A DNA stretch of 64,000 bases from positions 5,788,938 through 5,852,937 of the forward strand of contig KK106982.1 of the NCBI GenBank assembly GCA_000611775.1. The letters are read 5' to 3'. Shown one piece after another: positions 20,101-64,000 of this stretch (position 1 is its first letter; each line of letters opens with the position of its first letter). The notes under the pieces are model-generated. The model was not told the origin of the DNA and did no database searches. It saw nothing but the letters and a program-made list of their open reading frames with translations. The stretch is from Umbilicaria muhlenbergii (lineage: Eukaryota > Ascomycota > Lecanoromycetes > Umbilicariales > Umbilicariaceae). A program made the position numbers and the translations under genes.

Positions 20101-23100
20101 TAATAATAAAAAATAATTATTCACTGCCACTCATGTCAGAACTGCAGGACAGATTTCAGAGAATATAATGATTCACAAAGTTTAACATTTCAGGGGCATT
20201 CAATCAGATATGAATAAAAAAAGGTGATGAATGGAAAACAGTGTTTCAAACATGCTCAAGGCTGTATGAGTACTTGATAATGTCATTCAGATTAATCAAC
20301 ACCCCCGTGACTTTTCAAGCCTTTATCAACAATGTTTTATGATAATATTTAAATCAGTTTATAGTCATCTACCTCAACAACATACTGATGTACTCAAAAA
20401 TGAAAGAACAGCATGTCAAACATGTTCAGAAAGTTTTATAAACCTTAAAGAACACTGATCTGTGAGTTAAGCCTGAGAAAAGTCTTTTTCATGTTAAGGA
20501 AGTTCAGTTTCTTGAATTCATCATCATATTAAAAGACTTACAGATGAACCTGAAAAAAATTAAATTCATGATTGAATAATCAGTTTTAATTAATGTTAAG
20601 GAAGTATAATCCTTCCTAAGCTTTGCAAACTTTTATAAGAAGTTTATTGAAAAATATTTCAAGATCACAACACCTTTAATGAAGTTGATAAAAAAAATTA
20701 AAAGTTTATTTAATCTACTGAAGCACAAGAATCCTTTGAAGAGCTGAAGAAGTGCTTCATATCATAATTAATTCTCATGAGTTTCAACCCTGAGAAACTT
20801 ATTATGCTCAAGACAGACATATCAGATGAAGTTATAAAAGCATGCATTAATCAATTAAATAATAAGAGATGTCTGTGATCAGTAGCTTATTACTCATGAA
20901 AACTGTTAAATGCTGAACAGAGTTATAAGATACATGACAAAGAGTTGTTAATTATTGTCAACACATTTAAACAATGACATGTATATCTCAAAGGACTGAA
21001 GTATGAGGTTCAGATATATTCAAATCATAAGAATTTATTATATTTTATGACAATGAAAGTCCTGAATTGAAGACAGGTTCATTGATCAGAAGAATTATCA
21101 CAGTATAATTTCAAGATTCATTATCAAAAAGAATCAAAGGATGTTAAAGTGAATACTTTCAGCTGATGAGCTGACTACCTGCAGGAAAAGTCAGTCATAA
21201 ATTAAGTCATTCTCTAAAAAGATGAACAAGAGAGTATAACATATAACAGAGAAGTCAACTTTTATCATAAAGTTGAAGACAACACTTTTGAAAGTTGAGT
21301 TTAAAAAGTCCTGAAGAATGACAAGTTAGCACAGCAAATCCTTTAAAATATTAATGATCATGAAAGCTTCAAAAAGCAAGAAGGCCTCTTACTTTTTTAA
21401 AACTTAATTTATGTATCAGTCAGTTTATAAGAAGCACTGATAGAAGAATGTCATTTCAGCAAAATAAATAATCATTAAAAAGTTGAAAAAACAGTAAAAC
21501 ATACTACTTCTCATGATTGAGGAAGAAGATTGAAGAAATTATTTAAAAATATAATACCTGCTGAAAAAATAAAGCAGAGCGTCACAGACTGTATGAGTTA
21601 TTAAAATCATCATCAACATCATCACAATCATGATCAAGTATCACATTGAACTTCATGATAAAACTGTCAAAATTAAAAAAACCTCTGATGAAAGTACTGT
21701 ATGATGCAATACTTGTTATAACAGATCAACTTATGAAGTATGAATACTTCTTGTTATATAAAGAATCATTATCAGCAGAAAAACTAACATATATGTTCTT
21801 AAAAGTTATAACAGCTAATCATAAACTATCAGAAGAAATAATTTCAGACAGAGATAAACTCTTCACTTTTAAGTTCTGAAAATCATTAATGAATCAGTTG
21901 AGAATTTATCATAAGCTGTTCACTGCATATCATCCTCAGATGAATGGACAGACTGAATGCTTAAATTAAATGTTAAAACAATACTTGTGCTGTTATATTA
22001 ATTATCAACAAATCAATTGAGTAGAACTCTTACTGATAGCTCAGTTAACTTACAATATGACAACAATGAAATCAACAGGAGTATCATCATTTTATGTTAA
22101 TTATGAGTTCAACTCATCTATAAATGAAGCAAGGGGGCTGGTAGTGATAACATAAAAGATGAAAGTACAAGTGAACTGACTAAAAGACCTTCATCAGGAA
22201 CTTTAATGAAACATAAAATTTACTTTAAAAAGATCAGTAATATATTATAATAAGAAAAGAGATAAAGAATTTACTCTTAAAGAGAAGAATAAAGTATACC
22301 TTTTGCATCACAACATCAAGATGAAGTGATCAAGTAATAAATTAAATCACAAGAAGCTGAGACCTTTTTACATTTCAAAGAAGAAAAAAAGTGTTAATTA
22401 TGAACTTAAACTTTCATCAGTTATATGAATACACCTGATATTTCACATATCTCTACTTGAATCAGCTGACTTGAAAACATCATTACAAGACAATTCACCT
22501 GAGATTAACTCTGAAAGTCAAGATGCTGAATTTGAAGTAAAGGAAATTTTAAATCAACAAGAGATAAATGATAAATCTCATTATCTGATCAAGTGAAAAG
22601 GTTATGACATGACAGGGAACACATGAGAATCAATAAAGAATTTTACTTATTATTCAGTGAAGTTACATCAATTTCATCAGAGGAACCTGCTGTCAGTCAG
22701 TCATTAAAAATGATGAAGAGTTCAAAGAAGTTAAAGAGAGAATTAATAATTTAATTTTAAGTTAACTCCTCCTGCTTCAGTTCTTTAATGTTTTAAAGCT
22801 CAGTATGAATCAAGTTTATTTATCACTTCTTTAAGAGAGTGATCTGTTTGTGAAGTTTTTCTTTCTTCATCTTCAATTCTCACTTTTTAGTAGAAATGTT
22901 TATCTTTTTCTTTTATAAATGAAGAAGTTTCTCTCTGACATGATTCAACTCAGCTGAAGAAATTACAAGGTTATAAGCAACACCTGATTGAACACAAGAA
23001 CTGCAACAGTCAGATTCTGAAAACATAAAACACTCATAATCATCAGAGACACAGTGATGACAAAGTTACATGACAAGATTTCTGTAACTGATGATACAGT

Positions 23101-35042: not shown

Positions 35043-35833
35043 ATCTGCAACTTGGCAGCCCGCTCAAAAATAAGGTTTTAGTTAATAGTACTTTATGCAC
35101 TCAGAGCACTCTCTGAGCAGTAAATGAACTCATACAAATATTACACTTTAAATAAATATTATACCTTAATAAATAATAAAAAACTTTTTATTGAAAAGTT
35201 TTAGATCTCTTTATTCTGTACACTTTACAAACTAAAGATTTCTTCATAAGTTTTAATTTGCAATAGTTATGAATTAAAAAACTTTTAACTAATTATAAAT
35301 ATATTAGCATATTGAATAACTATTGCGCTTTTATACTTATAATATAACTTTCAGTTTATAAGTTGTAGAGAAGAAGCTATTAAACAGTTCTATAACTTAA
35401 AGTTTTTTTATAACTGTTATTGTTAAAAAGTTACATTGATTTCAAACTTCCAGTGATGAAAATCACAACATTAATAAACAGACTTTTAATGACTTTTTGA
35501 ATAACTCAACAACAACAACACATAAAAAGAAAGTTTGTATAAGAAAACTCTTAAACAGCTTATTCTCTACAACTTATAAACTGAAAGCTATATCATCAGT
35601 ATAAAAGCGCAATAGTTATTCAAAGTATGTGACTTTTTTTGAAAGATTTTTCACTATTGAAAACTTGAATTAAATATAACTTAACAACAACAGCAGTTAT
35701 GAAGAAACTTTTAATTTAACATTAATAAAGAATACTGTTTTTTATAACTTATGAATTGAAAGTTTCTTCATATCTGTTGAGGTGCAAAAGTTATTAAAGT
35801 GTGTAAATTTTTAAGTGATGAAAATCTTGAAGT

Positions 35834-36114
35834 TATCAGGGCCATCATATAATAGTATGACAGTACAACATTAGTACAACATTATAATACAACATTATAA
35901 TATGACATTATATAAATATGATGACTCAGCGCTTAGCGCCTTGACATCAAGTGAAAACTCTTCACAAGGAGGTTTAAAAACCTGCTTCCTCAGTGATCAG
36001 TTTTGTCATAAAATAAAAGATGTATAATCACTGCATTGACTCTATCATGACTTTTGCCTACAACACCCCGTTCAAACATCATTATGATGATCATCATACA
36101 CTCAGCCTTTTACA
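35834..36114 (+). repeat. 5' LTR of Gypsy copy B
   Basis: 281 bp. TATA box TATATAAATA near 35909-35918. AGTGATCAGT at 35992-36001 is complementary to ACTGATCACT starting two bases after the LTR end (36116-36125), a candidate self-priming pair. Confidence 0.92.
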
Positions 36115-39100
36115 TACTGATCACTCAGTACCTTCAGGTGAACGGTCATGTCAAAAGCATAAAACATGATGACATCAACACTTTGATCTCATCAGGTCAG
36201 TGAAACAGTTAATAATTAAGCTGAGACAGACCCTTCAATTAACAGGTTTACATTATCAGTCATTGATACCTCTACTTCTGACATCATTGATGATGATGAA
36301 CATATTGCTGCAGGCAACTCTGATGACATCATTAAAGATCTTGAGGCAGTCACTGCTCATAATCAGGAGGTCATCAAGCATCAATGATTACAGTTATGAT
36401 GTGTATGACAAGAAATTGAGTTTAAGGACAATAAAAGGAAGCTTCAGAAACTTAATCAACATCTGTAAAAAGATCCTTCAACTATGATTACAATAAACTC
36501 AGGGAACAACACAGGTTCATCACATGAATTATGATGTTGAGTTATGACAGACATCACACCTCCCCCTTTTCAACACCTCATAAAGTCATGAGAGCCTCAC
36601 CTTTATGCAGGAGGCATCAAAGTCATGAGATGAAAACTTCAAGAATACTTGAATGAAATTAATCAAAATCAGGAGCTGATGTCAGAGCAATTCTTTACTG
36701 AATGAGATTTCATCATCTGAGCAGGCACCTACCTTGAGAAAACAGTCATGAGTGACTGATGAAAGCAAAAGAAGCAGCATGATCACACTTGAATCATTTA
36801 TGACAACTTTTTAAAGATTCTAGAGAAGAATCTATCCCCTGATGAAGACACAAATGAATGAAATATCATCACTTTCAATGCAGTTGAACTCTGCAATCAT
36901 GATATAATCACCTCTTGATACAACAGATTATCAGAACTCTACTGCTTCCTTTCAACTTCACACAAGAAAATCAGTGAGACACTCATTTAAGATCACTGAT
37001 GATCAAGATTTCCTCATCATATCTTGACTGAACTATGACATTGAGATCTGACGCAGGTTGCAAGACAGTCAGTGCAAGAAATTTCAGCACATCTTGACAT
37101 CATCATTAATCATGAACTGTTCTGAAGCTGCTCAGACACCAAAAAGGATCATTAAAGCAAAACTGACAACAATGACAAAAGTATGACACAGATGTTGTAC
37201 TATGACAGAAAAGAATCTTTCACTGAACAATAAACCTCTCACCCTCAACAATTCAATCATGAAAGAGGAAACAATTCATGAGGCTTTTATTAAAGAAGTA
37301 GTCATGATCAAAGCTGAAATTTAAATCACATATCAGTTGCGGAGAAAGTGATCATGACAACAACACAGACATTCACAGGACCCTCATGCTGACAAGAAGA
37401 CTTTATTCTTAAGAATGAAGTGAATGCATGAAAAGCAGCAGACCTCTGTATCAAGTGTGAAGTCATCAGTCATTGAACAAATGAATGTACAACAGAATGA
37501 TCAACAGCAGTCATTACTGTGATTGATGTGAATAAATGACTCACAGTCAACCTTCAGCTCACCTTTTTACTTATCATTGATGATATTTCACATCTGATAT
37601 CAGGGCAGCTAAAGGTGAACTTTCATATGACAAGAGATGATCTGAAGAAAAAATACTCATATATTATTAACAATGACAGTCAAGGCAATATTATCACATG
37701 ATATGTTGTCAATGAACTGTCTTTACAAACTGAACCTTATGAAGCTCAAGTCAACACATGAGGCAATATGATTGACTTGTCAGAATTCATCATATTGACT
37801 ATTACAACATACAACATCAACAGTCAACCTTATCACTATAACAGCTGCTTTCTTGTCACATGAGACAACACATCAGCTTCTTTCATCCTCAGGTTATCAT
37901 TTCTAGTCAATGCAAACTTGAATCATGAATATGACACAGGGAAATTCCTATGAAAAAAGGTGAAACATATCACAGCACACTGAGTATTCATCATCAGTGA
38001 AAAGAAGACGCTGAAGAACATTTTACATATGAACAATCTTTTCATTATGAAACACTTCATAAGACTGTCAGACCTAGTGGCTGATATGAAAAAATATACT
38101 TTACAGATAAACTCATTGTGATATGATAAAAAGTATGACAATGTTTATGACAGTCTACCTCTTGAATATCATGACTTCACAGACATATTTTAAGCAGCTG
38201 AGAAGCAATCTCTACTTGAGAGAGGTTCACATGATCATGTCATTGACTTGAAATCAGAGCAGCAACCTTCATTCAGAAAGTTATACTCAATATTTTCAGC
38301 TGAGCTCAATGTACTGAAGGTATATCTAGATGACATTATGAAGATAAACATAATCTGCAAATTAATATCACCTGCAGCTTCACCTGTTATGTTTGTACTG
38401 AAATCAGACGGCAGCTTATGACTAGTCATTGATTATAAATGCTTAAATGATATTATCATTAAAAATCACTACTCATTATCATTTATATCAGACATGCTGA
38501 ATCATCTTCAAGGAGTTAAGAAGTTCACTAAGCTGAACTGCAAGAATGCATATAATAAAATATGAATCAAGGGTGAAGATGAGTGAAAAACAGCATTCTG
38601 AACATGATTCAGCCTGTTTAAATATCTTGTCATGTCTTTCAGTCTCATGAATGCTCCTGCTATGTTTCAGGCATTCATTGATAAGGCTCTTGATGAGTTT
38701 CTTGATATAATTTGCATGATTTATCTAGATGATATCCTGATCTTCAGCAAAGATGAATTCAAACATGAGGAGCATGTATGACAAGTATTAACTGTGTTAC
38801 AACATCATGATCTTCATCTTAAGATCAGTAAATGCTTCTTTAATGCAATGAAAGTGAACTTCCTGAGGTTTAAGATCAATATCAAAGGCATATATATGAG
38901 TTCAGAAAGGATTCACGCTGTTGAAGAATGATTACCCTCAGAGAACATTCATGAATTGCAGGTCTTTCTAAGCTTCATTAACTTTTTTTGAAGGTTTATA
39001 AGAGATTATTCATGAATTACAGCACTGCTGTTAAATCTCCTGAAAACAGGAAAGAATAAAAAGAAGATTAAGAATACATCATTCTCTCCTCTTCAGTCTT

Positions 39101-42100
39101 AATGAACTGTTATTAAAAGAAAGCAGAACAGCCTGACTTCATTGTGAAGATTTAATACAAAGTATTCAGCATGTAACCTGCAAGTTGAAGGAAAATTATG
39201 ATAAGAAAACATCATACCTGCCTCTTTTTCACTCTCAGGAGTCACATTGAAAGTGTTTAATGCTTTAAAGAAGACCTTCACAAGTGCTTCATTATTATGC
39301 TATTTTGATGAAAACAAACTCATGAGGGTTGAAACAGATGCCTCTGAATTCATAATTAACAGAATCTTGACATAACACTTCAAGGTTAATGATTAATTGC
39401 ATTGATTATCAATTACTTACTACAGCAAGAAGCTGCTAAATACTGAGACTTGATATGATACAGGTGAGCAAGAGCTCCTTGTCATCATGAAAGTCATGCA
39501 TCATTGACAGCACTACTGTCAGGGTGCTAAACATCAAATTGTCATACTGATTAATCATGTAAACCTTGTTTGATTCATGACTACCTCAAACCTCACATGA
39601 AGGCAGCTCAAGTGGGCTGAAAAGCTCATGAAGTACAACTTTAAGATCACATATCAAGAGGGCAAGAAGAACTCTGCTGACAGTTTATCAAGATGACCTG
39701 ATTATGAACTGCTGAAGACTGTCAGTACCTCAACTGCTGCTGAAATAATGTGACAGTCCTTCCATTTAGGAAGCAAGGATTATAAGTCAGTGCAGAAGAA
39801 ATTATACATGCTTGCTGCAATGATGCTGTGATCAAGACGCTCAATATGATAAAGATTACAACAAGAGAACATCATACCTGTCACAATGAATACTACTGAT
39901 ATGATGAACACTGAAGATGGCAGTCTCATTAAAACATCAGTGATGTGAAACTTATCTGCTCAAGAAGAAGCAAGCCGTGATGAATATGTCAATATGATGA
40001 ATACTGAAGTCAGTGGCATGACTGAAACATCAGCAGTTCATGGCCTACATACTTGAGAAGCAAGTCATGATGAATATATCAATATGATGAATACTGAAGT
40101 CAGCAGTATGATTGAAACATCAGCAGTTCATGACCTACATGCTCAAGAAGCAAGTCATGATTGAATAAAAGAACTTAAGTATGCAGAGCTTCAACAGCAC
40201 TCAATCAAGGATAACTCAGCAAACACTGCAGTTATGAACAATGATGCAAGTCATGTTTTTATTAATCTTTAAATTGAGGATAACACTTCTGCTGACACTG
40301 TTGAAGCACTTCAACTCATGTCTACTCACTCATCAATAGGTGAGGAGATAACAGCTTATATAAAAATGTTTATCAAACAACTTGAATGTGTGATTCATAC
40401 TGAGCAGTCAAAAGACAGTTTGATATGATGAGTACAACAGGAATTAACTACCCCTTTTGAGGATAAAAACAACTTGACTGAGTCTGAGATGATAAATATG
40501 AATATAAACATGAACCCTGAGATGATCATGACATCAGAAATGCAGTCAAATATGACATTTATACTGTCAAATATATGAAAATGTTGACAAGAAATAAATG
40601 ATGTTGTACACTACAATGATAAGATTTACATTCCGCAGAACCCTGCCCTTCACAATGCAGTGATCAATCAATTTCATGATGATGTTTTTGCAGGTCATTT
40701 CAGGAAGTCAAGAATTACAGAATTAATGCAGTGATCTTATGATTGACTTGATGCTGTCAGAGACATATGATGTTACTGTCATGATTATGTTAAATGTCAA
40801 AAGGTGAAGTCAGCTCATCACAAATCATACAAGTTATTGAACTCATTATCAGTCTCAAAAGTGTCATGACATACAGTGACAATGAACTTCATTACAGACC
40901 TGTCACTGAGCAGCACATATGAAAGTACAACATGAGATTCAATCCTCATCATAATTGATAAGTTGATCAAAATAGCTCATTATATTTCAGTACAGAAGAC
41001 AATGTCAGTTGCTGACTTCATTGAAGTGTTTATTCAGGACATTATTAAGCATCATGATGTATCAAAAGTCTTAATCACAGACAGAGACAAGCTTTTTACA
41101 TTAAAGTAATGAATCAACTTCTGCTTTCACATGTGATGCTGTCATAACATGTCAACAGCTTTTCACCTGCAAACTGACAGTTAAACAGAGAGGCAGAATC
41201 AGTCCTTGAAGATGTATTTATATATATTTGTTGATGAGCAGCAAGAGGACTGAGTCAAGCTTTTACCCTGTGTGAAGTTCTCATACAACAACTTCATACA
41301 TGCTGCTACAGGAAAGAGCCTCTTTCAGCTTAACTTAAAGTGAGATCCTCAGATGAGCTTAAGTAAATCATTTATATGACACTCACATGAACAAATAAGA
41401 TTCTATGCAGACACACAGCAGCTTCAAGATCAAATTACAACAGCTCAGAAGCAGTTATGACAGGTTAATAAAATATATGCAAATTATTATAATCAGCGCT
41501 GAACAGAGATAACATTTAAAGAAGGTGATTTAGTACTGATTAATGAAAAGAATGTGTCAGTGAACAAACAGATGAAGAAACTGCATTGAAAAAAGCTCAG
41601 CTCATTCATGATATGATGTGTAATAAGTCAGTCATCATATGAACTTGATCTCTCAGAGGATCAAAACATCTATAATGTATTCAACATCACTTTATTGAAG
41701 TCATTTTGAAGCACATGTCATGTGTCTTCTGCATTGACAGGAAAAGACCTGCTACTCAATTAAGATGATGAGTGAGAAGTTGAAGCAATTGTGAATAACT
41801 GTGTTCATGACAGCAGGCTTCAATACCTCATTAAATGAAAACTGACAGATCAGGTGTGAGATGACACATGAAAGTTAACACACTTCATTCACAATGTAAA
41901 GGCAAAAATGCAGAAATTTCATGCTGACAACTCTGACAAATCAAAATTCAGGCAAGCTGTATGATGTGACCCTTCAAGGTCAATTGAGAAGCTGTTGCAA
42001 AAGTCATGAGCCTTAAGAAAGCTGTTGCAAAAGTCATGAGTCTTAAGAAAGCTGTCACAAAAGTCATGAGCCTTAAGAAAGCTGTCACAAAAGTCATGAG

Positions 42101-42378
42101 TCTTAAGAACTGAAAACTTTGTCAGCTTTGTTAACCTGATCTTCTATGACAGAGCCTGTGCCTTACAACAAGTATGACAGAGGTTATGATGCTACAATGT
42201 TATGACAGGATCTTTAATAGGATTACAGCATAAACTACATTATCACAGACATGTCACATTGCAGAGAACACTCAAGTGTAAAAGCATTTCATTTCAGGTC
42301 TGAAGATTAAAGTGAACTTAAAATCAACATCTTGCACTCAACCCTTCATTAATGCTGCATCAAGTCACTCTCATTTAT

Positions 42379-43349
42379 TTACTTGTCTTTCATCATCTTA
42401 AATTCTTCTTCATTGTCTGATGAAGCCTCTGATCTCATCTCCTCAACACAACACTGCTCACAGAGTTCAATGTACTCTTGATGATGATGAGATTAATGAG
42501 TGTTGAGAATGCAGAGAGCGTGAGCAGTGCTCTTCAATAAGACAGCAAGAGCTTGAATGAGCTCCTCAGGACTATTGAATTAACATTAATCACCTCATTA
42601 TGAATGTCATGAGACTCATGTTGAGGAGCAGCTGTGAGGAGCGTGAAGAATGCTGATAATGATTAATAAAAAGCAGCAGCATGAGGATCTGATGATCAGT
42701 CATTAAACATTATGACTAATTAACAATGCAAAAGTATGACATAAAGTACAACAAAAGTATGACATAAAATATAACACTTTATCATACTAAACAAAACAAA
42801 AGGGGATTGAGGAAGGCAGACTTATGATGTGTCATCACTCCTCTGATCATCATAAACACGTGTCAGGACAACAACATCAGAGCTTTTAAAATCAAGAGCA
42901 GTGATGATCAGAGGCTCTGCTGTGCATTACTCATGAGAATTGTGAAGAGATATACAACATGTGCAGGCTCCCTTGTCTGACACAAAGCAGTGATCAACTT
43001 CAGCCCTTATACAAGGGTCACAGTGAGCAGTACTCAACAACATGTGATTGAGGTTCTCTCAAATCACACGCTCATGATGATGAGCCTGCTGCACATGAGC
43101 CGGCAGTGAGGTATCATCATGACATCACACAGAGCAGGAACTGCTGCTGAAGATGTCATTCAGAGATAAACACCTGACCCTCTTTAAGTGCTGAACAGTC
43201 AGTTTTATCACTCTGTTTCCTCATCTCTTTCTGAAGATGTCAATCATCACAGTTTCACTTGCTGACTCTGACTCAGAGCCCTTCTCATCACATTGAGCCT
43301 GAAGATCAACAGGCTTCCCTGATGAAGGTGAGTCTTCACTGTTGTTCAT
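42379..43349 (-). other. Antisense Cys-rich accessory reading frame of Gypsy family 1 (copy B)
   Basis: On the strand opposite to gag-pol, between pol and the 3' LTR. A decayed frame starts at an ATG near 43349 with an acidic Ser/Glu/Asp-rich N-terminus (MNNSEDSPSSGKPVDLQAQ...). It contains a Cys cluster C-x2-C-x7-C-x7-C-x2-C near 43020-42945 and ends in an acidic tail (EASSDNEEEF...) with a terminator at 42379-42381. The same arrangement is found in copy E (53333-52349), with the start, Cys spacing and acidic tail retained although both are RIP-mutated. The Cys pattern resembles zinc-binding clusters of fungal TE-associated proteins. Function unknown. Both copies are broken fossils. Confidence 0.65.
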
Positions 43350-43839
43350 GATCATGAGTTCAAGAGTTTAAGTATTGATTGCTTATATATCATGTTAGCA
43401 TTCATATGAAGTATGACAGAAAGTATGACACTGCAAATGAAGTATAAACTGCAAGCTTCATGATGCTTCCTTCATGAGGTGAACACCTCTGCAATGAGGG
43501 ATGACATCATGAAGTCATCAGGTCACTCAATGAGCTGCAGAAAAATCATGAGAAGTATGACAACATGTTGTAAGAGAGATGATGAAGAAGAAACACAAGG
43601 AAAGAGTGTTTTAAATTTATGATAAACATTTTAATTTCAATGTTTATGTTAAGAGGAACTTACTGCCAGGCGTGATATCATAACAATTAAGTGAAGCATG
43701 TGATCAGTCTTATCTTAGCACAGTTTCACATCCTCACTCTACATGATCAACCACTTATCAGGTCATCATGATGATGTTTATAATGATGAATTCAGAGTCA
43801 ATTAACATCAGAGATGACGTCATGAGAAGGAGAATGCTG

Positions 43840-44120
43840 TGTCAGAGCCATCATATAATAATATAATAATACAACATTAATATGACATTATAATACAACA
43901 CTATAATATGACATTATATAAATATGATGACTCAGCGCCTAGCGCCTTGACATTAAGTGAAAACTCTTCACAAGAAGGTTCAGAAACCTGCTTCCTCAGT
44001 GATCAGTTTTGTCATGAAATAAAAGATGTATAATCACTGCATTGACCTTATCATGACTTTTGCCTACAACACTCCGTTCAAACACCATTATGATGACTGT
44101 TGTACACTCAGCCCCTTACA
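43840..44120 (+). repeat. 3' LTR of Gypsy copy B
   Basis: 281 bp, TGTCAGAGCC...CCCCTTACA. Same length as the 5' LTR, mostly transition differences, followed directly by the target duplication GAAGT. Confidence 0.92.
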
Positions 44121-46020
44121 GAAGTTCTTTAAATATTCAGAACTCAACACTTATACAGTGCTTTCAAACTCAACAAATCATGATTTTTTATTGCAGAAAA
44201 GTGAATTTTAGCAAAAGTTTACTTATTATAAGTTTTACTGTTATTATAACACTGTGTGTGTACTTGTTTAAACAATTGTTTTAATAACTGTTTTTTTATC
44301 ACAAAATTTTGATGTTCCGCTCAAGATTTAAGGTTGAGCTCAAAGCGCTCAAAGGATGCTAAGAGAGGCTGTTAGCTGAGACATGAGATCAGAAGCTCAG
44401 AGCGCTCAAAGTGTTAAAAACTAACTCAAAGCTAACTTGCTAAATTGCTGATGCAAGAGACACATGACATGTGTCTTGAAATGACTTCAATAAAGTGACA
44501 TTGAATATGTTATAGATGTTTCAATCCTCTGAGAGGTCAAGTTTGTATGATGACTGACTTATCACATGTCATATCATGAATGAGTTGAACTTTTTTCAAT
44601 GCAGTTTCTTCATCTGCTTGTTCACTGACACATTCTTTTCATTAATCAGTATTAAATCACCTTCTTTGAATGTTATCTCTGTTCAGCGCTGATTATAATA
44701 ATTTGCATACATTTCATTAACTTGTCATAATTACTCTTAAGTTGTTGCAATTTGATCTTGAAGCTGCTGTGTGTCTGCATAAGATCTTATTTATTCATGT
44801 GAGTGCTGTATAAATGATCTACTTAAGCTCATCTGAGGGTCTCATTTTAAGTTAAGCTGAAAGGGGCTTTTTCTCATAGCAGCATGTATGAAGTTGTTGT
44901 ATGAGAACTTCATGCAGAGTAAAAGCTTCACTCAGTCCTCTTACTGCTCATTAATGAATATGTGTAAATACATCTTCAGAGACTGATTCTGCCTCTCTGT
45001 TTGACTGTCAGTTTGCGGGTGAAAAGCTGTTGACATGTTATGATGACATCACATGTGAAAGCAGAAGCTGATTCACTGCTCTGATGTAAACAGCTTATTT
45101 CTGTCTGTGACTAAGACTTTTGACACATCATAATGCTTAATTATGTTCTGAATAAACACTTCAATGAAGTCAGCAACTGACATTGTCTTCTGTACTGAAA
45201 TATAATGAGTCATTTTGATCAACTTATCAATTATGATGAGGATTAAATCTCATGTCATACTTTCATATGTGCTGCTCAGTGGCAGGTTCATAATGAAGTT
45301 CATTGTCATCATATGTCATGACACTTCTGAGACTGATAATGAGTTCAATAACTCATATGATTTATGATGAGCTGGCTTCACCTTTTGGCATTCAACACAG
45401 TCATGACAGTAACATCATACATCTCTGACAGTGTTAAATCAGTCATAAAATTACTGCATTAATTCTGCAGTTCTTGACTTCCTGAAATGACCTGCAAAAA
45501 CATCATCATGAAATTGACTGATCACTGCATTGCAGAGGGCAGGGTTTTGCAGAATGTAAACTTTATCATCATAATGTATGACATCATTTATTTCTTATCA
45601 ACATTTTCATATATCTGACAGTATAAATATCATATTTGACTGCATTTCTGATGTCATGATCATCTCAGGGTTCATGTCTATATTCATATTTATCATCTCA
45701 GACTCAGTCAAGTTGTTTTTATTCTTAAAAGAGGTAGTTAATTCCTGTTGTACTTATCATATCAAACTGTCTTTCAACTGCTCAGTATGAATTGCATGTT
45801 CAAGTTGTTTGATAAACATTCTTATATAAGCTGTTATCTCCTCACCTATTGATGAGTGAGTAGATATGAGTTGAAGCACTTTAACAGTGTCAGCAGAAGC
45901 ATTATCCTCAATTTAAAGATTAATAGAAACATGATTTGCATCATTATTCATAATTGCAGTGTTTGTTAAGTTATTTTTAATTAAGTGCTGCTGAGGCCTT
46001 GCATATTTAAATTCTCTTAT

Positions 46021-52348: not shown

Positions 52349-53333
52349 TTACTCTGTCATCTCATCTTCTTCTTCACTGTTTGATGAAGTCTTCAATCTC
52401 ATTTTTTTAATGTGATGTTGTTCACAGAGTTCAATGTACTCCTGATGATGATGAGATTAATGAGTGTTGAGGATACAGAGAGCATAAGCAGTGCTTTTCA
52501 ACAAGATAATAAGAGTTTAAATGAACTTCTTAAGATTACTGAATTAACACATTTCAATCTCAAGAGAGTTAAAAAACTCATATTGAGAAGCAGCTGCAAG
52601 AGGTGCAGAGAATGTTAATAATGATTAATAAAAAGCAGCAGTATAAGGAATTAATTAATCATCAGATGTTATAAACAATTAATATATTAATAATATGATA
52701 ATATGACAGATAGTATGACAAAATGTTGTATATATAACAGATAATATGACATCATCATATTAAATAAAATAAAATGAAAAAGAGTTAAAAAAGATAAATT
52801 TACAGTGTGCTGTCACCCCTCCTGTCATCATAAGCATGTGTGCATGAAACAACAACATCAGATCTCTCAGAGGTCAAAGCAGTGATGATTAAAAACTTTA
52901 TCATGCATTAATTATGAGGATTGCAAAGTGATGTGCAACAAGTGCAAGTTGAATTAACCTGTGACATAAAGCACTGATCAATCTCAGCTTTTTTGCAAGA
53001 GTCACAGTGAGCAGTACTTGACAGCATGTGATTGAGATTTTTTAAATCACACACTCATAATGATGACCCTGCTGCACATGCACTGACAGTGAGGTATCAT
53101 CATGACATCACACAGAGTAAAAACTGCTGTTGAAGACATCATTTAACAATAAATATTTAACTCTTCAGATGTTGAACAGTCAATTTTATGACTCTGTTTC
53201 CTCATCTTTTTCTGAAGATGTTAATCATCATGAGCTCACTTATTAACAACAACACCTCAGAGCTTTCCTCATCACACTGAGCATGAAGGCTGACAGGCTT
53301 ACTCAGTGAAGGCAGGTTTTCATCATTATTCAT
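52349..53333 (-). other. Antisense Cys-rich accessory reading frame (copy E)
   Basis: Homologue of 42379-43349 in copy B: same ATG context (MNNDENLPSLSKPVSLHAQ), Cys cluster C-x2-C-x7-C-x8-C-x2-C near 52990-52915, and an acidic C-terminus (SSNSEEEDEM) with a terminator at 52349-52351. Decayed by many changes. Confidence 0.6.
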
Positions 53334-55260: not shown

Positions 55261-57720
55261 ATGGATAACAGGGATTCCATCGATCGCTCGTCTTCCGAGC
55301 TGGGTACCAACACGGTAACCAATGGCGCCTCGACAGTTGGTGCTGGACTGGGGGATAGTGGAGATGGCTACGCCGTGCCGCCGACAGCAGCGACGAATGA
55401 GTCTCCTTCAGTGGTGGAAAACGTGCTACAATCAGATGTGAGACGCAGGCTAAATGTATCATGATGAAGACAAGCGCTATACTGACTTCGGGTGCAGATC
55501 GGTGTGAACACTTTGCTCACTCGATTGAAGCAAAGCATCGCATCGGCGCGTGTTAGTACTTGGAGGATCCGGCCGATGCTGTCATGGGCTGACCAAAGAT
55601 AGGATTTTGCTGCGTTCCTCAAGAAGAGGTCTACACTGGAGGAGGAACATGCGCAAGGCTTGAAGAAGCTGTGTCGAACTACCCACGAGTCGACTCGACG
55701 GCCGGACAACCGGCAGGGCTCCTATGCGCAGAATTATGACGAGATTACCCGGATACACGAGCGCATGGCGGACAACGGCATACAGTTTGCACTGTCGCTC
55801 CACCAGATGCACGAAGACTTGCATGAACTTGCCAATAACACGGAGCGTGGGCGGAAGCATTGGAAGCAGACCGGCGTGAATGCGGAAAAGAGGGTGCAAG
55901 ACTCGGAGTCGATGATGGAGAAAGCAAAGGCCAAGTATGACTCGCTTGCGGAGGATTATGATCGAGCTCGTACCGGCGACAAGCAATCCGGAAGGGTATT
56001 CGGAATAAAGGGCCCCAAGTCAGCGGCTCAGCATGAGGAGGACTTACACCGTAAGGTACTGGTTGCTGATTCTGACTATGCATCTAAAGTCCAGACTTCG
56101 CAAACCCATCGGCAGGAGCTTATAAGTACCCTCCGTCCACAAGCAGTGAGAGCATTGCAAGAACTCATTACCGAATGTGATTCTGGTTTGACTCTGCAGC
56201 TGCAAAAATTTGGTAGGCTTCCAAAATGCCCCATATACTATGGCAATTATACTCATGAGGTTACAGCATCCTTCAATGAGAAGCTCCTCCTCAGCAATGG
56301 GCTCTGCGTGAGCCCTCTGAAGAGCCAGAACAGTGGTCAAGGATCGGCTACTCGGAGTCTGCGGGACGTTGTCTACCAGATCGATAATGAGAGAGACTTC
56401 AACCAATTCATTGCAAGTCATGCTTCGAAGGTTGGGCCTAAGCGCCCGGACATCAAATATGAGCGTCACCCTGTAAGGTCTTCCAGAAGAAACTTACTCT
56501 GGTTACAGCCGCTTACGGCATGATAGACCCTGATACCCGCTCAACAAACACCGCCTTCTGCAACCCGCCAAACCCAAGCCATCTACACCCAGCAAGCTCC
56601 GCCTTCATATGGGATGCAGGGCCCCCCGGCCCAGAACAGCCCTTCATACGGTGGTACTAGCTTCTCCCAAGGAGGGCCCACCCAGAGCTTCCCAGCTGCA
56701 GTTCAGCCAGTGACGACCGAGAGAACCTACCGCGGCTCACCCCAACAGCAACACTTTCCGTCCTCAGGTGCCACTGGTCCCCCGCAACTTCCTCCACCAC
56801 CGTTCGCGTCAGCGGGCCATTCGCAGTCAGCGGCCCCAGTGGCGGCAGCCCACAACAACACTTACGCGGCCGAACTACCTCCATTGAAACCGGTCTTCGG
56901 TCTTTCCTTGGATGAACTGTTCAAGCGAGATGGCTCAGCGGTGCCCATAGTGGTATACCAGTGTCTCCAAGCCGTCGATCTGTTCGGGCTGGAGGTCGAA
57001 GGCATCTATCGACTTTCCGGTACCGCTTCACACGGCACCAAGTTGCGGGCAATTTTTGACAATGGTGAGACCCGTGTCGAAGAACAAGCGGTGCGCCGAT
57101 GTAGAATACTAAAGCAACCCAGACTCCTCTCAGGTGGATTTCAGGAATCCCGAAAACTTCTTCCACGATGTGAATAGCGTTGCCGGCTTGTTGAAGCAGT
57201 TCTTCCGCGATTTACCCGATCCTCTATTGACCACAGAACACTACCAAGGATTCATTGAAGCTGCCCGTAAGTGGTGCTGAGCGCGTTGCGGTGTTCGCCT
57301 AGCTGAACGGATGGTGCAGGTATCGATGACGATGCTACTCGCCGCGATTCATTGCATGCTACTATCAACAGTCTGCCCGACCCAAACTATGCAACGTTAC
57401 GAGCGTTGACCCTTGTGAGTACCCGATGCCCTATATTGTTCCATCTTGGGAACTCTAATGCGTTGGCAATGTGAACAGCATCTGAATCGCGTCCAAGAGC
57501 ATTCGAACATGAATAGAATGAATGCAGGCAATCTGGCCATATGCTTTGGGTACGCTTCTGTAGTCTTGTTCAGCAACCAAAGGTATGCTTATACTGACCA
57601 TGCTGCAGGCCAACACTCATGGGCTCAAGTACGGGGCCAGACATTGCCGATGCTGGCTGGCAAGTCCGAGTGATTGATACTATTCTGCAAAACACGTACC
57701 AGATATTTGATGAGGACTGA
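55261..57720 (+). CDS. RGD1: Rgd1-type F-BAR/RhoGAP protein
   Basis: Nine exons: 55261-55437, 55498-55551, 55603-56212, 56267-56472, 56527-57064, 57123-57266, 57320-57414, 57479-57549, 57609-57720. All eight introns (51-64 bp) are GT-AG and the sum is in frame, 668 residues. An F-BAR domain ([40 protein letters not shown]) fills about residues 58-330, then a Pro/Gln-rich linker, then RhoGAP from about residue 469 with the arginine finger in GIYRLSG (Arg about 511), [30 protein letters not shown] and [13 protein letters not shown]. Family role: GTPase activation of Rho3/Rho4-type GTPases at curved membrane for actin organisation and polarised growth. The ATG at 55261 is chosen because it opens the conserved short N-terminus; a farther ATG at 55150 is in frame. 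Convergent with MED12. Looks intact. Confidence 0.95.
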
Positions 57721-58485
57721 TCCTCTAATTCGGTGGATTTGATGGCATGTTGCCGCGATCTGTGCTGTCCCGCCACTTGTTAGTTTCCGAAAGAGGGCGG
57801 CAGGAGGCTGTTTCAGTGCGGCTTGAGATGACCTGCATATGTACGACTAGCTGTTGGTAGTGCTTGGAAGGATCAATTTCGCAGAATTTGTGTGGGGTTG
57901 AATTTGATCGATTGTTGCTGCTGCTGCTACCGTCGGAGAATCTTCTTATGAACTTTGTATCACTCCACATCGGCCATCATCACGTCGGCCAATGCGTCAC
58001 CGCCACACTCGTTAAAATTTCACGAGACTAGACGGACAAGAGTGCTATCTATCCCCTCCCCGCTTTCCTTCCGCAGCTACGATGGTGACAGATGCGCAAT
58101 GTAGAGTAATGCTAGCATAAAGATATCGCGGTAATGCTAGCATGGAGATATCAAGATTTCGGAGCAATACTAGCATAAGGATATTGGAAAATCGCTCGCA
58201 TAAGATATTGACGAATGCAGTGAATCGCATCAAATCCCGAGTGAAATCCACGAGCCAAGCATCCATCTCGATCCCCGACGTTGCTCTAATGCCCCCGAAG
58301 CCCCCATGCCGTGGCAAGTGCCAGGCTTGCCCAGCGCCCTTCGCCCAAGACGCCTCCCAAATGCAAACCAATACCAAACTTCAAGCACGCCGACTCGGAG
58401 TTCCCGCTGAAAACGCACCAAAGGTATCATATAGCAGAAGATGAATTCATGTACTAACAGTCCATCCCGGGTTTCTTGCCGGGTT
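57721..58485. other. Convergent intergenic region RGD1/MED12
   Basis: The 3' ends of two converging genes. Near 58106-58205 there are three imperfect ~35-bp repeats containing AATGCTAGCATAAAGATAT. The frames seen here overlap on both strands without family similarity; no gene called. Confidence 0.5.
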
Positions 58486-61400
58486 TCAGAGTTGCAAAAC
58501 CGCCTTCCTGGCCCCGAAAAGACCCAAACTAAGGCTCGTGTCATTCTCTCCCACAATGGGCGTCGCTTCCTGCATCATCTCCCACCTTCTCAGGGGAAAT
58601 GGCTGCTGCACGGTCGTCTTCACGCCTCCTCTCTTCAGCTCAGATGTTGTCGTCGTCGGCGTCGTCGTCGTCGTCGTCGTTGTTGTTGTTGCGGTTGGTG
58701 ATAATGATAACGTAGACGTGGAAATTAGTTGCAAGCCCTCGCCATCGATACCGTCTGGATACCCAAAGAGGAAGCGGAGGCGTGGATCTCGAGTTTTGTA
58801 TTGCTCAGTGAGGATGCGAATACAGGTGGCGCGTGTATCATCGGCTAAAGAATCCATTAAGAGGGCGAGGACATCGAAGATGTGGGTGGAGAGTGTAGCA
58901 TTGCGAGTCAGCCGACCATGAACCAGAAGAGAGCTTAGGCTCAGCAGCAGGCGTGCCACATTCGATTGCGATGCTTTCAGGTGTGCAAAAGTGCAGTGAT
59001 GAATGATGAGAAGGCGAAGAACAACGTCAATACTGGGGCTGTCAATATCATTTCGGGAATTAAGATAGCGCGGGACTGACTTGAGGTATATAATCTCCAG
59101 CTTCTGCTGCTTGACCACTGGAGCACACTCCTCGATCTCAGAGGGTTGAGTTTCGGAGGCTGCATTTGAGAAGGCTGAAAGCACACAGTCCAATATCTCT
59201 ACTATATGAGCAAGCAGTTGAGAAGCACCCGTGTCGGGAATGCTGTCATCATCAGTGACATCGATAATCGAGAGCAGGCCCTCAAGCGCGGTGGTCTTTT
59301 GCTTAAAAGAAGGCGATATCGCACTCGCGCTTGGTGTCAGATAGGAAAGTAGCTCGGTCTCTGCCATTTCCCGGAGCTGTCTTATATTAGTCTTCCATGA
59401 GGGTCTAATCAAGGGTTGGCAGCAACCCACCTGCGTGGTGTGCGTCTTGTCAAGGACCGGAATAAGCTGAGCCCACACTGTTGATCCGCGGTCGATGGAC
59501 GATTTGATCGCTTCCATCAACGTAGGCACCACAGAGTCTTGGCTTGAGTCAAGCCTGATAGCATCAGGGCCGCTGACGGTCGACTTGAGCTTCAATTGGC
59601 AAAAGGGCAGGTTAAGGTCATTTGCTATCTGCATGATCGCGGTTATTTGGCTATCAACATCTTCGTGCAGAACATCTAACACAAGTTAGATGAGTTAGGG
59701 TATACTAAGGTATGTTGCTTACCCTGCTCTGAACCAGGGATCAATAGTTGATTGATAGCTAGCTTGACTTGGTCTACTAATGGTTCTGCAGTGAAAGCTT
59801 GGAGAAGCTCCGGTAGCGATTTCGGATGGCATACCATGATGTCTTTCAAAAGGCTAGCACCATCAGGGCTTGAGATTAGAGCCCGAGCATTCGACTGCGT
59901 CAAAGGTGGGCCTTCTGTACAAGCTCTGATGGTAGCACGAATAATTAAAACAAGCTGGGAGGGGTGAGTGCGGATTATGCACTCCTGTTCCTTACGAAAC
60001 CGATATACCCTCTGTGACGATTGCGAAACACCGTGGTAATGCATTGAGAATTGATCGAGTGGAGTATGTGAGCAAAGCAGCTCTAACGTGTCCGTTGCCA
60101 GCTTCCCTTGTTGAGGCATCTTCCCAAGCTCTTCAAGTAGAAAGCTTGCTTGTTCCACCACTGCCCGCAGAGTCGTACATCCGCTAGAAATTAAGGCGGG
60201 TAGTATATCCAGGAGGCGTGGTCGAATCGTAGATTGTAAGAGTCTATCCAGCCAGCCGTGCATGAGCTGGTCAAACGCCTTGGTATCGAACGACCGCAAG
60301 CGGGTCAACAGCTCGGAAAGATTGACCGAAGACGGAGATCCATCTCCTGGTAGCCCTATTCGGCTCATTACGGTCTCAAACAATCGCGATAGGATCTGCC
60401 TGTCCATACTTGAACCGCTGGCTAATACTTGTTCTAGCTCGTCCGCAAAATTCGATTCGGTAGACTGAAGTGCTTCGGCCATATGATCCGAGACTGGAGA
60501 ACATGCAGCGATTGCGCACTTCCGCTCATACGAAAAGACCACTTTTCTTAGCTGCCGGACCAGCGATACCTGGTTTGGAAGATTCTCTCCTAAATCGATA
60601 AGAGATATAACTAGCGACTTCATGATAGGTATCTGAGCATGTACCTCCTCGCGCCGCTGGCAAAAAGTTTCGAACAGATCATCCACAGCGCCAATAGCCG
60701 CGAAAACGTCGACATAACGATTGATCGTATCAACAGCAAAATTCAAGACTCGTGCATCTTCGCAATCGGAGACGATATTGAACACATCGGCCAGAATGGT
60801 AAAGTCTTCGAGATATTCGAGAAAATTCAGTATCGTCGCGAGTTCATTCACGGTTATGGTTGCTTCCCTTGAGTCTGCAACAGGTGTCGCTTTCGTGTCT
60901 GGTTCAGGGCTGTCACCGTATGACTGGAACCGCAAAGCGATCCCTTGTCGAATCCATCGGCCAAGGTCCCACTTGGCGGTGCCGCTGAGCGGTATCAGAT
61001 CAAGACTAGGCAGCACAGCCTGAGTTGAAGGCTCAACGGCCGGAAGAAGGCCCGGGACTTGCTCCGCTATACTAGCTTTGGCGGCTTCTCTCGCCTTGTT
61101 CTCCTCATCCGTCGAGAAACCCACTGAAGTCAAGAGAATGCGCCGTAGATTGAGTACATGCTCTGGTAAACCGTGCAAAGGAATTTCGCAGAGAAGACGC
61201 GCATCACACGAATCGCCCTGCGTAATTGTCAGATCGATGCTTCGACGGGGGTCAATGATAAGTTCAGGACTTACGGGGCTGAGAGAATGCCGGCCGCTCA
61301 AGGAACCTCGAGCCAGCAGCCACTGAAGATACTTCCCTACCGAGAAATGTTTTGAGCGAACAAGCTCAGCTATGATTCGGTAGATGCTACTTTTCTGTAA

Positions 61401-63426
61401 TCCCACCATCGCCGGGCTCGCGGCCAAAAATGCAAGGATGGAGCCACCGATGTCGATATCAAGTCTTGCCCACCTCCGTAGTAGACGTACGGCTACGTAT
61501 ATCCTTGCTTGCCCTCTGCGATATAAGGTCGAGGCCCACTCAAGCACCGTAATAATCAGCAACTCTCTACATCCGTCGACTTGGAGGCATGCATCCGACG
61601 TTCTGTGTAGATTGAAAGCGGCTGGGATATTGTCCAGCAGGGCGATAAGCTCCGGTCGAGCGTCTTTGGCTGCATAGGGGGAACGCTTGTCCCGAGATCT
61701 GATGAGGTGTAGGTTGCGAACCGAGAGATGCTCGAAAGTAGATGTCAAGGTTGTGTTTTGATCCGAAAGGCAAGACCTCAGCAACGCCTCATACTTGAGC
61801 CAAGAGCTCGGAATAATGAAGCAGGCTGGGTTCGCTATCATGAAGGACTTCAATAGCCGTACTAGCTGCTCTTGGATGGGGAGGAGAATCTCATCGCCGT
61901 CATGATCACAAGCCTTCGTTGTCGAGGTCAGCGGCCGTTCAACCGGGACGGCCGCCAAAGCACATACCCTCCGAAGTTGCTCTAATAGTGCCTCTGCAAG
62001 GCGTCGACCTCGGCGGCGATATTGCAGGATCTCCTTCCAGTGTATCTGCGTCACTAGTAGCCAAATAGGTACACTATTCAAGTCGCTATTATAAAGGGAC
62101 GTGATCATCCAATCAACGTAGTGATCCTGATCTATCAAATTTTCTGAAAACAAGTGCGAAGACAATCGTAACCTTTGAAAATCGTCAGCAGATTTCTCGG
62201 GGGTTGTTAGATTCGGCAAGCATTTACGCATAATTAATCAGGTCTTTCCAGTTCGCAGTGCCGCAGCTATCAATGGTTGATTCGACAAACTGCTCGACGT
62301 GTGATGTCCATTCCCTGATCCATTTCGCTTCACCACCCACCGCAAAAGCACCGCTGGTACCCTTTCTTTTGAAGGCACGGATCTCGTTGGCACCAACGCA
62401 TTTGGCCAGCCAGACCGCTCTCCCTGTCGGAATCTCTTTGTGAAGGCAATGGTCGAGGAGAACCTTGCCCCGAATTCCGTGGGGAATGGTTCGGCTCAGC
62501 CGGCGTAGTGGAATTGTGGGGTCGGCGAGATCCCTCAACCACGCTTCTCGCTTTGTATCGGTCAAGGTTACTCGCGGCGGAGGTTTAAATGTGGAGTTCG
62601 CTGTGACCGTGCCATGCGCCTGCCGTTGGTCGAGCGCGGAGACAAACAAGGATGACAGGATCTGCAGGCCGGACTTGTGTTTGAGGCTGGACCAAATGGA
62701 TGGCCTTGCAGTATTCGTCTCGTTCTGGGCCACTTGGGTCTTCTCGGAGAATCCATGCTTGGTCGTTTGCTCCGTCAGGATATCCTCCGGGTGATTCCCC
62801 GTCCAGGGGAAGAAATCAGCCGGTCCTGACAGTACCGTGACACAAACATCAGCATTCGCATCCCTTATAACTCGATGGGCGGTGATTGAATACTCACTGT
62901 CTGGCGAGTACTGTGGAGCAGACGTAGGGATGCTTAAAACGTAGGGCTTGACTTGGACATCGCCTCTTGTCGCGATTTTGTTGAAAGGCAGTCTTTTCGG
63001 TGGTCTCGGGGCATACTTGCCCGGTCGGATGGGAAACGGGAGAGACGAGCGGGATCTGTCCTCGACCCATCTGGGATCCTGAGCCCTCGGTGAGTTCAAA
63101 GTCGCGGTGTTGATGTTCAAAGACGCCGGGCTCCCGACGATCGACCTTTGCGAAGGCTGATGCATCGGCTCTCCATCACCCAGCAGCGGAGACCTGAGGC
63201 CAGCGCTACTGGTGCCATCATCAAGCTTCTGCCTCTTATATGTCGGGCCCGATAGATCTCGTGAAGACGTCGGCGCATCGGTGAGATCGATCACCACTTG
63301 CTGCGAGGCCAGTCGGGGCACCTGTGGGGAAGAGTGAGAGGTCGCGCGACTGGGGGGCCGCGGGAAGCTCGAGCTGGGCAACGGTAGAGGTGGGCGACGG
63401 ATACCCACTGAGGGATGACTGGTCAT
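58486..63426 (-). CDS. srb8: Mediator subunit 12 (Srb8)
   Basis: Four exons on the minus strand: 63426-62228, 62172-59723, 59675-59431, 59376-58486. Introns of 55, 47 and 54 bp are GT-AG with CTAAC/CTAAT branch points; the joined frame is 1,594 residues, the usual size of Aspergillus-type Srb8. The N-terminus has IDLTDAPTSSRDLSGPTYKR, then the Med12 core (DFFPWTGNHPEDILTEQ about residue 210; SSLKHKSGLQILSSLF; PPPRVTLTDTKREAWLRDL; SRTIPHGIRGKVLLDHCL; WLAKCVGANEIRAFKRKG). The long helical body begins SSHLFSENLIDQDHYVDW, and the C-terminus has RRWEMMQEATPIVGENDTSL, the family's usual end. Med12 activates cyclin C-Cdk8 in the Mediator kinase module in the nucleus. A poly-Thr run near the C-terminus is encoded by a trinucleotide repeat. 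Looks intact. Confidence 0.96.
58645..58692. repeat. GTC/GTT trinucleotide repeat in MED12
   Basis: About sixteen GTY/GGC-type triplets (GTTGTCGTCGTCGGCGTCG...) reading as a run of Thr codons on the minus strand, about 45 codons before the end. Such runs change length readily; here the family position is a variable linker. Confidence 0.9.
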
Positions 63427-64000
63427 CGTTCAGTCATGTTGGCCGTGGGATGCTGTTGTCGAGACGCAGGACTGCAACGATCGGGCACAGAATCTCGATG
63501 ACGCCGTCGAGGGCCGGCGGCGGGCGGCGACAGAGGAGACGGGCAATAGGAAGAGAAAGGAACGAACGGCAAGGGCGTGTGCAAGACAGTAATGATGATT
63601 TGGCGAAGCTCGCACCGTGAGACGAATACATGAAGCAGCCGGCGACTGAGTGAGGTTGTACCGATTACCCTACGGCCATGCCCACAGGCCAAGGCCAAGC
63701 CGATTCTGGGCGCTGGGCCCCGGGGGAGGGTTGCCTGGGTCCAGGGAAGAAGTGTCCGGTAGCCGCTGTCACTGCTAATGGGCGGATTGCGCTCGGGCTT
63801 TTCGGAAGATCTGCTGGTAGGTCCCACCTTGCACGTCGCAGGAGCCCTCGGCCGCACAACGAGCAGTGAGCACAGTACTCCCTTGCCGGAGTGAGCACAG
63901 TGCGCACGCCCGCCGTGACACTGCGCACAGCAACCCTGCCGAGGCCGTCGAGCCCGCTTCCCAGTGGTCGCCCGTTTTAAACATCTGTACAATTATTTGG
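63427..64000. other. Upstream region of MED12
   Basis: Promoter/leader DNA of MED12. Overlapping frames on both strands (such as 63992-63423) show biased composition but no family similarity or consistent structure. Short direct repeats GTGAGCACAGT occur near 63866-63901. Confidence 0.45.

What the first reader, a model, noticed from the sequence alone, without database searches (positions are those of the whole stretch)
42379..43349. Conserved antisense accessory frame with a Cys cluster in a chromovirus
Seen: opposite to gag-pol, between the chromodomain and the 3' LTR, copies B and E share a decayed frame with the same start context, the same C-x2-C-x7-C-x7/8-C-x2-C spacing and an acidic C-terminal tail. 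Known: LTR elements usually carry only gag and pol; antisense accessory frames are described in some plant elements and rarely in fungi. Inference: family 1 once carried an extra gene, perhaps a zinc-binding nuclear protein. The fossil is broken in both copies.
Basis: partly seen in the sequence, partly recalled or inferred. Interest (0 to 1): 0.82.

Follow-up and report, generated by a model that had tools for sequence, protein, structure and literature searches.

The report
Antisense gene relic in fungal retrotransposon
A decayed jumping gene found in many copies in this genome seems to have carried a small extra gene on its opposite strand, a kind of accessory gene already known from a few plant and fungal elements; here it shows a six-cysteine motif and signs of an intron.

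Summary
Copy B is an LTR element (35834-44120; 281-bp LTRs, GAAGT target-site duplication) with RT, RNase H, integrase and (partly tested) chromodomain pieces on the + strand. In 99 aligned copies these segments have fewer lineage-level transversions than the stretch between them, the 4 shared indels in the segments are 3 nt long (outside, 6 of 17 are multiples of 3), and third positions carry a weak excess (19 of 39 columns, p=0.033; pol 22 of 28 differences). Two other codon tests found no antisense coding signal. Corrections: the shared ATG is probably a CpG-decay product; there is no single frame (three fixed stops; the tail lies in another frame); the motif has six cysteines. A GTAAGT/AG pair that would join cysteine frame and tail in frame suggests an intron. 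Zinc binding is unsupported by Pfam, PDB or host zinc-cluster profiles. [quoted passage not shown] Most likely a new member of that kind.

The parts
35834..36114 (+). 5' LTR of copy B (281 bp), preceded by GAAGT at 35829-35833
   Evidence: direct repeat of the 3' LTR, 91% over 279 nt; ends and target-site duplication read
38608..38778 (+). reverse transcriptase piece of pol
   Evidence: RVT_1 E=3.1e-9
39205..39372 (+). RNase H piece of pol
   Evidence: RT_RNaseH_2 E=3.9e-7
40588..40731 (+). integrase zinc-binding piece
   Evidence: Integrase_H2C2 E=0.00084, below the curated cut-off
41776..41835 (+). 20-residue piece of a decayed chromodomain
   Evidence: Chromo E=0.0063, below the curated cut-off
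43382..43389 (-). TATA-like TATATAAG shortly upstream of the antisense frame; possible antisense promoter (inference)
   Evidence: sequence; core TATAA in 51 of 72 aligned copies, TATAG in 21
43131..43349 (-). N-terminal antisense segment (Ser- and acid-rich); no stop fixed in >=90% of copies between 43385 and 43127, but variable stops, the commonest at 43223 (63 of 77); 43349 is probably not an original start
   Evidence: 16 of 219 columns with inner-branch transversions
43059..43127 (-). stretch bounded by two fixed stops in this frame (43127, 43061); conserved, role unexplained (intron?)
   Evidence: 78 of 78 and 79 of 79 copies; 43130-43059: 2 of 72 columns with inner-branch transversions
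42826..43055 (-). cysteine segment, six Cys: C-x2-C-x7-C-x7/8-C-x2-C-x9-C
   Evidence: per-codon table over 99 copies; 150 genomic places, cap; stop-free in 52 of 97 fetched copies
42575..42825 (-). probable intron: donor GTAAGT at 42825, acceptor AG at 42576-42575; would join the two segments in frame
   Evidence: GT 73 of 99, AT 25 of 99, GTAAGT exactly 49 of 99; AG 81 of 96; 39 of 251 columns with inner-branch transversions; 39 of 57 private indels counted over 43600-42384 lie here
42382..42574 (-). acidic C-terminal segment in another frame; in B followed by TAA at 42381
   Evidence: 150 genomic places, cap; stop at 42381 in 31 of the 31 copies aligned there; 9 of 193 columns with inner-branch transversions
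43840..44120 (+). 3' LTR of copy B, followed by GAAGT at 44121-44125
52806..53039 (-). cysteine segment in copy E
   Evidence: tblastn with fetched copies, E=3.4e-43
52357..52543 (-). acidic tail segment in copy E
   Evidence: 79% to the tail segment of B

Best explanation
The interval is the relic of an accessory gene of a chromodomain LTR retrotransposon, transcribed opposite to gag-pol from a promoter near the 3' LTR and probably spliced. Shown: position and strand, recurrence at 150 or more places, constraint on two separate segments, 3-nt indels in them. Inferred: an intron (42825-42575) joins the cysteine segment to the acidic tail, giving a small protein with a six-cysteine, metal-binding-like module and an acidic end; such a protein would most plausibly act in the nucleus on the element's own expression or on its nucleoprotein complex. 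The copies examined have lost most CpGs and carry stops or frame breaks in one segment or another; I did not find an intact one.
For: Recurrence of both segments at 150 places each, the cap. Segment-specific conservation with sharp loss between them. The 4 shared indels inside the segments are 3 nt long, against 6 of 17 multiples of 3 outside, p=0.035, sites not fully independent. Third-position excess of inner-branch transversion columns, 19 of 39, p=0.033, same direction in the three segments; pol pieces among window copies 22 of 28 differences. The sense frame that shares these third positions in the cysteine segment has fixed stops. Donor GTAAGT where conservation and the open frame end, acceptor where conservation resumes, frame kept across the join. 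A less decayed relative (L107) keeps the tail open over 65 codons and ends at about the same place.
Against: Synonymous-transversion test not significant for the three antisense segments in their frames. Codon-substitution test: z=1.2 (N), 1.5 (cysteine), 1.6 (tail) for the antisense frames, and its highest value, 3.7, for the sense frame over the tail. With 43220-43161 kept in, transversion steps over the N and cysteine segments are 25/24/37 by codon position, not significant; 13/11/31 without it, a choice made after seeing the data (sums). Two stops (43127, 43061) are fixed inside a conserved stretch and no convincing splice sites explain them; 43223 is a stop in 63 of 77 copies. No original start codon found. 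Of 7 private indels in the N and cysteine segments, 2 are multiples of 3. Terminal-branch transversions are also lower in the segments, so part of the contrast may be alignability. No transcript data.
Confidence: 0.6

Rival explanations
1. The stretch is conserved as non-coding sequence of the element (antisense regulatory RNA, promoter, RNA-packaging or other cis signals); the cysteine frame is incidental.
For: The piece between the two fixed stops is as conserved as the putative exons (2 of 72 columns); two codon tests without antisense signal; Cys codons not kept better than other TGY triplets in the same segment.
Against: The 4 shared indels in the segments are 3 nt; third-position excess in each segment; cysteine frame stop-free over 76-78 codons in 52 of 97 fetched copies.
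Confidence: 0.22
2. A sense-strand extra frame (env-like position) is the coding one, at least over the tail segment.
For: Highest codon-substitution z (3.7) is for the sense frame over 42579-42384; copy E has a 76-aa sense open frame at 52388-52618.
Against: The third-position excess in the cysteine segment fits the antisense frame; the sense frame with the same third positions has fixed stops there. Over the tail the sense frame is bounded by fixed stops at 42423 and 42624, so it could not continue from pol without a further break.
Confidence: 0.08
3. The antisense gene is a captured host zinc-cluster transcription factor fragment.
For: Six cysteines with C-x2-C pairs recall the fungal Zn2Cys6 layout (recalled); the genome has 63 of 72 listed Zn_clus matches over the cut-off.
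Against: None of the 72 Zn_clus matches lies within 2 kb of any of the 150 cysteine-peptide places; no Zn_clus match in 32 pieces; profile comparison 2.1%; x7 in the first loop against x6 in the ten host domains read.
Confidence: 0.06

Closest known systems
brtn of Boty-like elements, Botrytis cinerea (Zhao et al. 2011, not seen; known from PMC8365987 and PMC4227169, passages, and PMC7264820, parts 1 and 2 of 3)
   Same: Antisense gene between pol and 3' LTR of a fungal element whose gag-pol includes a chromodomain (PMC4227169, passage)
   Different: BRTN sequence is not in the tools, so homology, cysteine motif and introns could not be compared; here I found no intact copy
Plant antisense aORFs (Grande gene23, RIRE2, Retand ORF4, PvRetro13), review PMC7264820 (parts 1 and 2 of 3 read)
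   Same: Position and orientation; own promoter and nuclear protein reported for Grande gene23
   Different: Plant hosts; no six-cysteine module mentioned in the parts read; protein similarity not testable here
Fungal Zn2Cys6 domain (Pfam PF00172)
   Same: Six cysteines, two C-x2-C pairs, basic residues in the first loop of many copies
   Different: x7 instead of x6 in the first loop, x9 before the last Cys, no clear profile similarity

Membership tests
LTR retrotransposon, chromodomain-bearing Ty3/gypsy (chromovirus) | paired LTRs with target-site duplication | tested here: met
   281-bp LTRs, GAAGT on both sides
LTR retrotransposon, chromodomain-bearing Ty3/gypsy (chromovirus) | RT - RNase H - integrase order | tested here: met
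   RVT_1, RT_RNaseH_2, Integrase_H2C2 in that order; the last below its cut-off
LTR retrotransposon, chromodomain-bearing Ty3/gypsy (chromovirus) | chromodomain at the end of integrase | tested here: inconclusive
   a 20-aa piece matches Chromo at E=0.0063, below the cut-off; stops split the domain; the element's own chromodomain is not among the 150 of 508 candidates scored
antisense accessory gene between pol and 3' LTR (aORF-3R) | opposite strand, between pol and 3' LTR | tested here: met
   (copy B)
antisense accessory gene between pol and 3' LTR (aORF-3R) | present in most copies of the family | tested here: inconclusive
   150 places, cap; copies were found by this very stretch, so copies without it would not have been seen
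antisense accessory gene between pol and 3' LTR (aORF-3R) | protein-level conservation comparable to pol | tested here: inconclusive
   third positions 19 of 39 columns against 22 of 28 differences in pol; other tests without signal
antisense accessory gene between pol and 3' LTR (aORF-3R) | antisense transcript | not testable with these tools
   no RNA data
Boty brtn | sequence similarity to BRTN | not testable with these tools
   paper not held, protein not available
Zn2Cys6 (PF00172) | Pfam profile match | tested here: not met
   0 of 32 pieces; profile comparison with ten host domains 2.1%
Zn2Cys6 (PF00172) | x6 between Cys 2 and Cys 3 | tested here: not met
   x7 here; x6 in the ten host domains read

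The most novel reading that the evidence does not exclude
The element encoded, antisense and spliced, its own small transcription regulator: a six-cysteine DNA- or RNA-binding module of a new type plus an acidic activation tail, made from an internal antisense promoter and acting on the element's LTRs, in function comparable to antisense-encoded regulators of retroviruses.
Probability: 0.15. Interest if true: 0.72.

Novelty: new member of a known kind. Interest (0 to 1): 0.42.

Why it matters
The review read here (PMC7264820) gives no known function for antisense accessory genes of LTR retrotransposons. A fungal family with 150 or more places, several subfamilies, a recognisable cysteine module and likely splice signals gives a handle for finding undecayed relatives in other fungi and testing whether such genes regulate the element.

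Tried and rejected
Single continuous antisense gene starting at 43349: rejected (fixed stops, decayed start). Other frames for the cysteine segment: no support from transversion phase and fixed stops. An intron to remove the two fixed stops at 43127 and 43061: no consistent donor and acceptor seen; left open. A first exon ending at the donor-like GTAAG at 43663, present in 70 of 70 aligned copies: the ATG before it is missing in some copies in the manner of CpG decay; left open. Host zinc-cluster capture: rejected. Relatives in viral contigs: 31 stretches matched a pattern, none confirmed. A long chromodomain-bearing frame in the fetched copies: none printed. Papers: Zhao 2011 not held; PMC8365987, PMC4227169, PMC5987419 and PMC3248453 seen as passages only; PMC7264820 parts 1 and 2 of 3. 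Searches for a fungal antisense accessory gene, some with zinc terms, were seen as listings (20 of 57, 4 of 4, 20 of 21, 12 of 148, 12 of 52, 10 of 27); the only fungal case I noticed is Boty brtn. Searches looked for CpG decay in related fungi and gave nothing used.

Full report
What the element is. Copy B lies at 35834-44120. Its two 281-bp LTRs are 91% identical over 279 nt and are flanked by GAAGT. Stop-free pieces of the + strand match RVT_1, RT_RNaseH_2 and, below cut-off, Integrase_H2C2 and Chromo (20 residues, E=0.0063). The genome has 34.8 Mb in 7 contigs. CpG observed/expected is 0.08 in 36-44 kb and 0.94 in 56-64 kb: the repeats have lost most of their CpGs.

Copies. DNA of the interval finds 41 matches with 40 of 205 candidates scored; 40 of the 41, the window included, cover most of it. 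The interval of copy E also finds 41 (40 of 192 candidates scored), several of them partial. The cysteine peptide of E finds 150 places (150 of 163 candidates scored), the tail of B 150 (of 154). 99 of 100 entered the final alignment. A tree of the first 80 shows a B clade, a second clade and several deep lineages that include E. Because copies were found by this stretch, copies of the family that lack it would not have been seen.

What is conserved. Because most variation is C-to-T or G-to-A, I counted transversions. Columns with a transversion on an inner branch: upstream 37 of 251, N segment 16 of 219, stretch between the fixed stops 2 of 72, cysteine segment 14 of 233, stretch 42825-42575 39 of 251, tail 9 of 193. 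Indels shared by at least 5 copies: the 4 inside the three segments are 3 nt long; 6 of 17 outside are multiples of 3 (some of the 17 share a site). Third codon positions hold 19 of 39 inner-branch columns over the three segments (7 of 16, 8 of 14, 4 of 9; p=0.033); stop-free pol pieces compared among window copies give 5/1/22 transversions by position. So the approach has power in pol and shows only a weaker signal here.

Results against. The synonymous-transversion test is not significant for the three segments in their antisense frames. The codon-substitution test gives z=1.2, 1.5 and 1.6 for them, no antisense frame anywhere above 2.3, and its largest value, 3.7, for the sense frame over the tail. 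By steps instead of columns, the N and cysteine segments together are 25/24/37 by position, not significant; leaving out the poorly aligned 43220-43161 gives 13/11/31, a choice made after seeing the data (sums). Terminal branches also show fewer transversions in the segments. Of 7 private indels in the N and cysteine segments 2 are multiples of 3. Stops that vary among copies include 43223 (63 of 77), 43301 (30 of 77), 42929 (34 of 80) and, in the tail, 42495 (38 of 77) and 42555 (25 of 78).

Corrections to the reading. At 43349 copies read ATG, GTG or GCA in contexts that suggest a decayed CpG codon; the 'same start context' of B and E is then decay. In that frame stops are fixed at 43127 (78 of 78), 43061 (79 of 79) and 42824 (79 of 80). 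The acidic tail is in another frame, without a fixed stop from 42579 to the stop at 42381, which is present in the 31 copies aligned there. Six cysteines are kept: 99, 89, 94, 95, 75 and 99 of 99 copies, spaced x2, x7, x7/8, x2, x9; two further Cys codons of B at 42959 and 42944 vary like decayed CpG codons and do not belong. Cys codons are kept better than other TGY triplets region-wide (p=0.034), not within the segment (p=0.27).

Splice signals. At the end of the cysteine frame stands a donor: GT in 73 of 99 copies, AT in 25, GTAAGT exactly in 49; the stop at 42824 overlaps it. The acceptor AG at 42576-42575 is kept in 81 of 96 and conservation resumes there. Cysteine segment and tail are then in one frame. 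Donor-like hexamers in at least a quarter of copies occur at 4 antisense places in 2.5 kb (43663, 43620, 42825, 42619), so the coincidence is notable but not unique. The two fixed stops at 43127 and 43061 and the true start remain unexplained; a TATATAAG at 43389-43382, core TATAA in 51 of 72 copies, could mark an antisense promoter (inference).

Protein family. Of 32 pieces scanned, none matches a zinc-cluster model; the best Pfam match is COX17 at 0.078, two members. No PDB match below E=1. A profile comparison with ten Zn2Cys6 domains of the same genome (ten of 72 matches) gives 2.1% probability, E=0.023 over 9 columns; one of 30 column shuffles scored higher. No Zn_clus match lies within 2 kb of the 150 cysteine places. 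Metal binding is therefore inferred from the cysteines alone.

Known kind. [quoted passage not shown] it reports a nuclear product and own promoter for Grande gene23 and says the functions are unknown. PMC4227169 (passages) states that a Boty-like gag-pol holds a CHROMO domain, with brtn in the element; PMC8365987 (passages) cites Zhao et al. 2011 for brtn, an antisense gene by that paper's title. One Monilinia transcript resembles BRTN (PMC5987419, passage). This relic fits that kind; whether it is a BRTN homologue could not be tested.

Mechanism. Shown: opposite strand, position, recurrence, constraint. Inferred: antisense transcription from an internal promoter, splicing, a small protein with a cysteine module and acidic tail acting in the nucleus. 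Confidence in a coding relic 0.6, in the intron about 0.5, in a nuclear regulator about 0.3.

Noticed in passing
window 36000-44000 against 56000-64000: Repeat-specific loss of CpG (observed/expected 0.08 against 0.94) without TpA excess (0.58); at 108 dimorphic sites the TG fraction is spread evenly from 0 to 1, which suggests that decay was inherited through active lineages.
   Followed up: partly
window 43660-43740, - strand: Conserved block before the 3' LTR with GTAAG at 43663 in 70 of 70 aligned copies and a site that reads CACATG or CATGTG among copies, as a decayed CACGTG would.
   Followed up: partly
window 41988-42110: About four tandem copies of a 30-nt unit between chromodomain and antisense tail in copy B; fewer in E.
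   Followed up: no
L107:1013-1207 (C1:4612-4806): Less decayed tail segment (CpG observed/expected 0.27 in the locus), 65 codons open, with segments in a different order than in B; its peptide is identical at C5:2477850-2478044; the first lies within 5 kb of the end of C1.
   Followed up: partly
window 22531-22683: Chromodomain of another element in the window (23.8 bits, below cut-off, 2 TGA).
   Followed up: no
whole genome: The chromodomain profile gives 508 candidates, of which 150 were scored.
   Followed up: no
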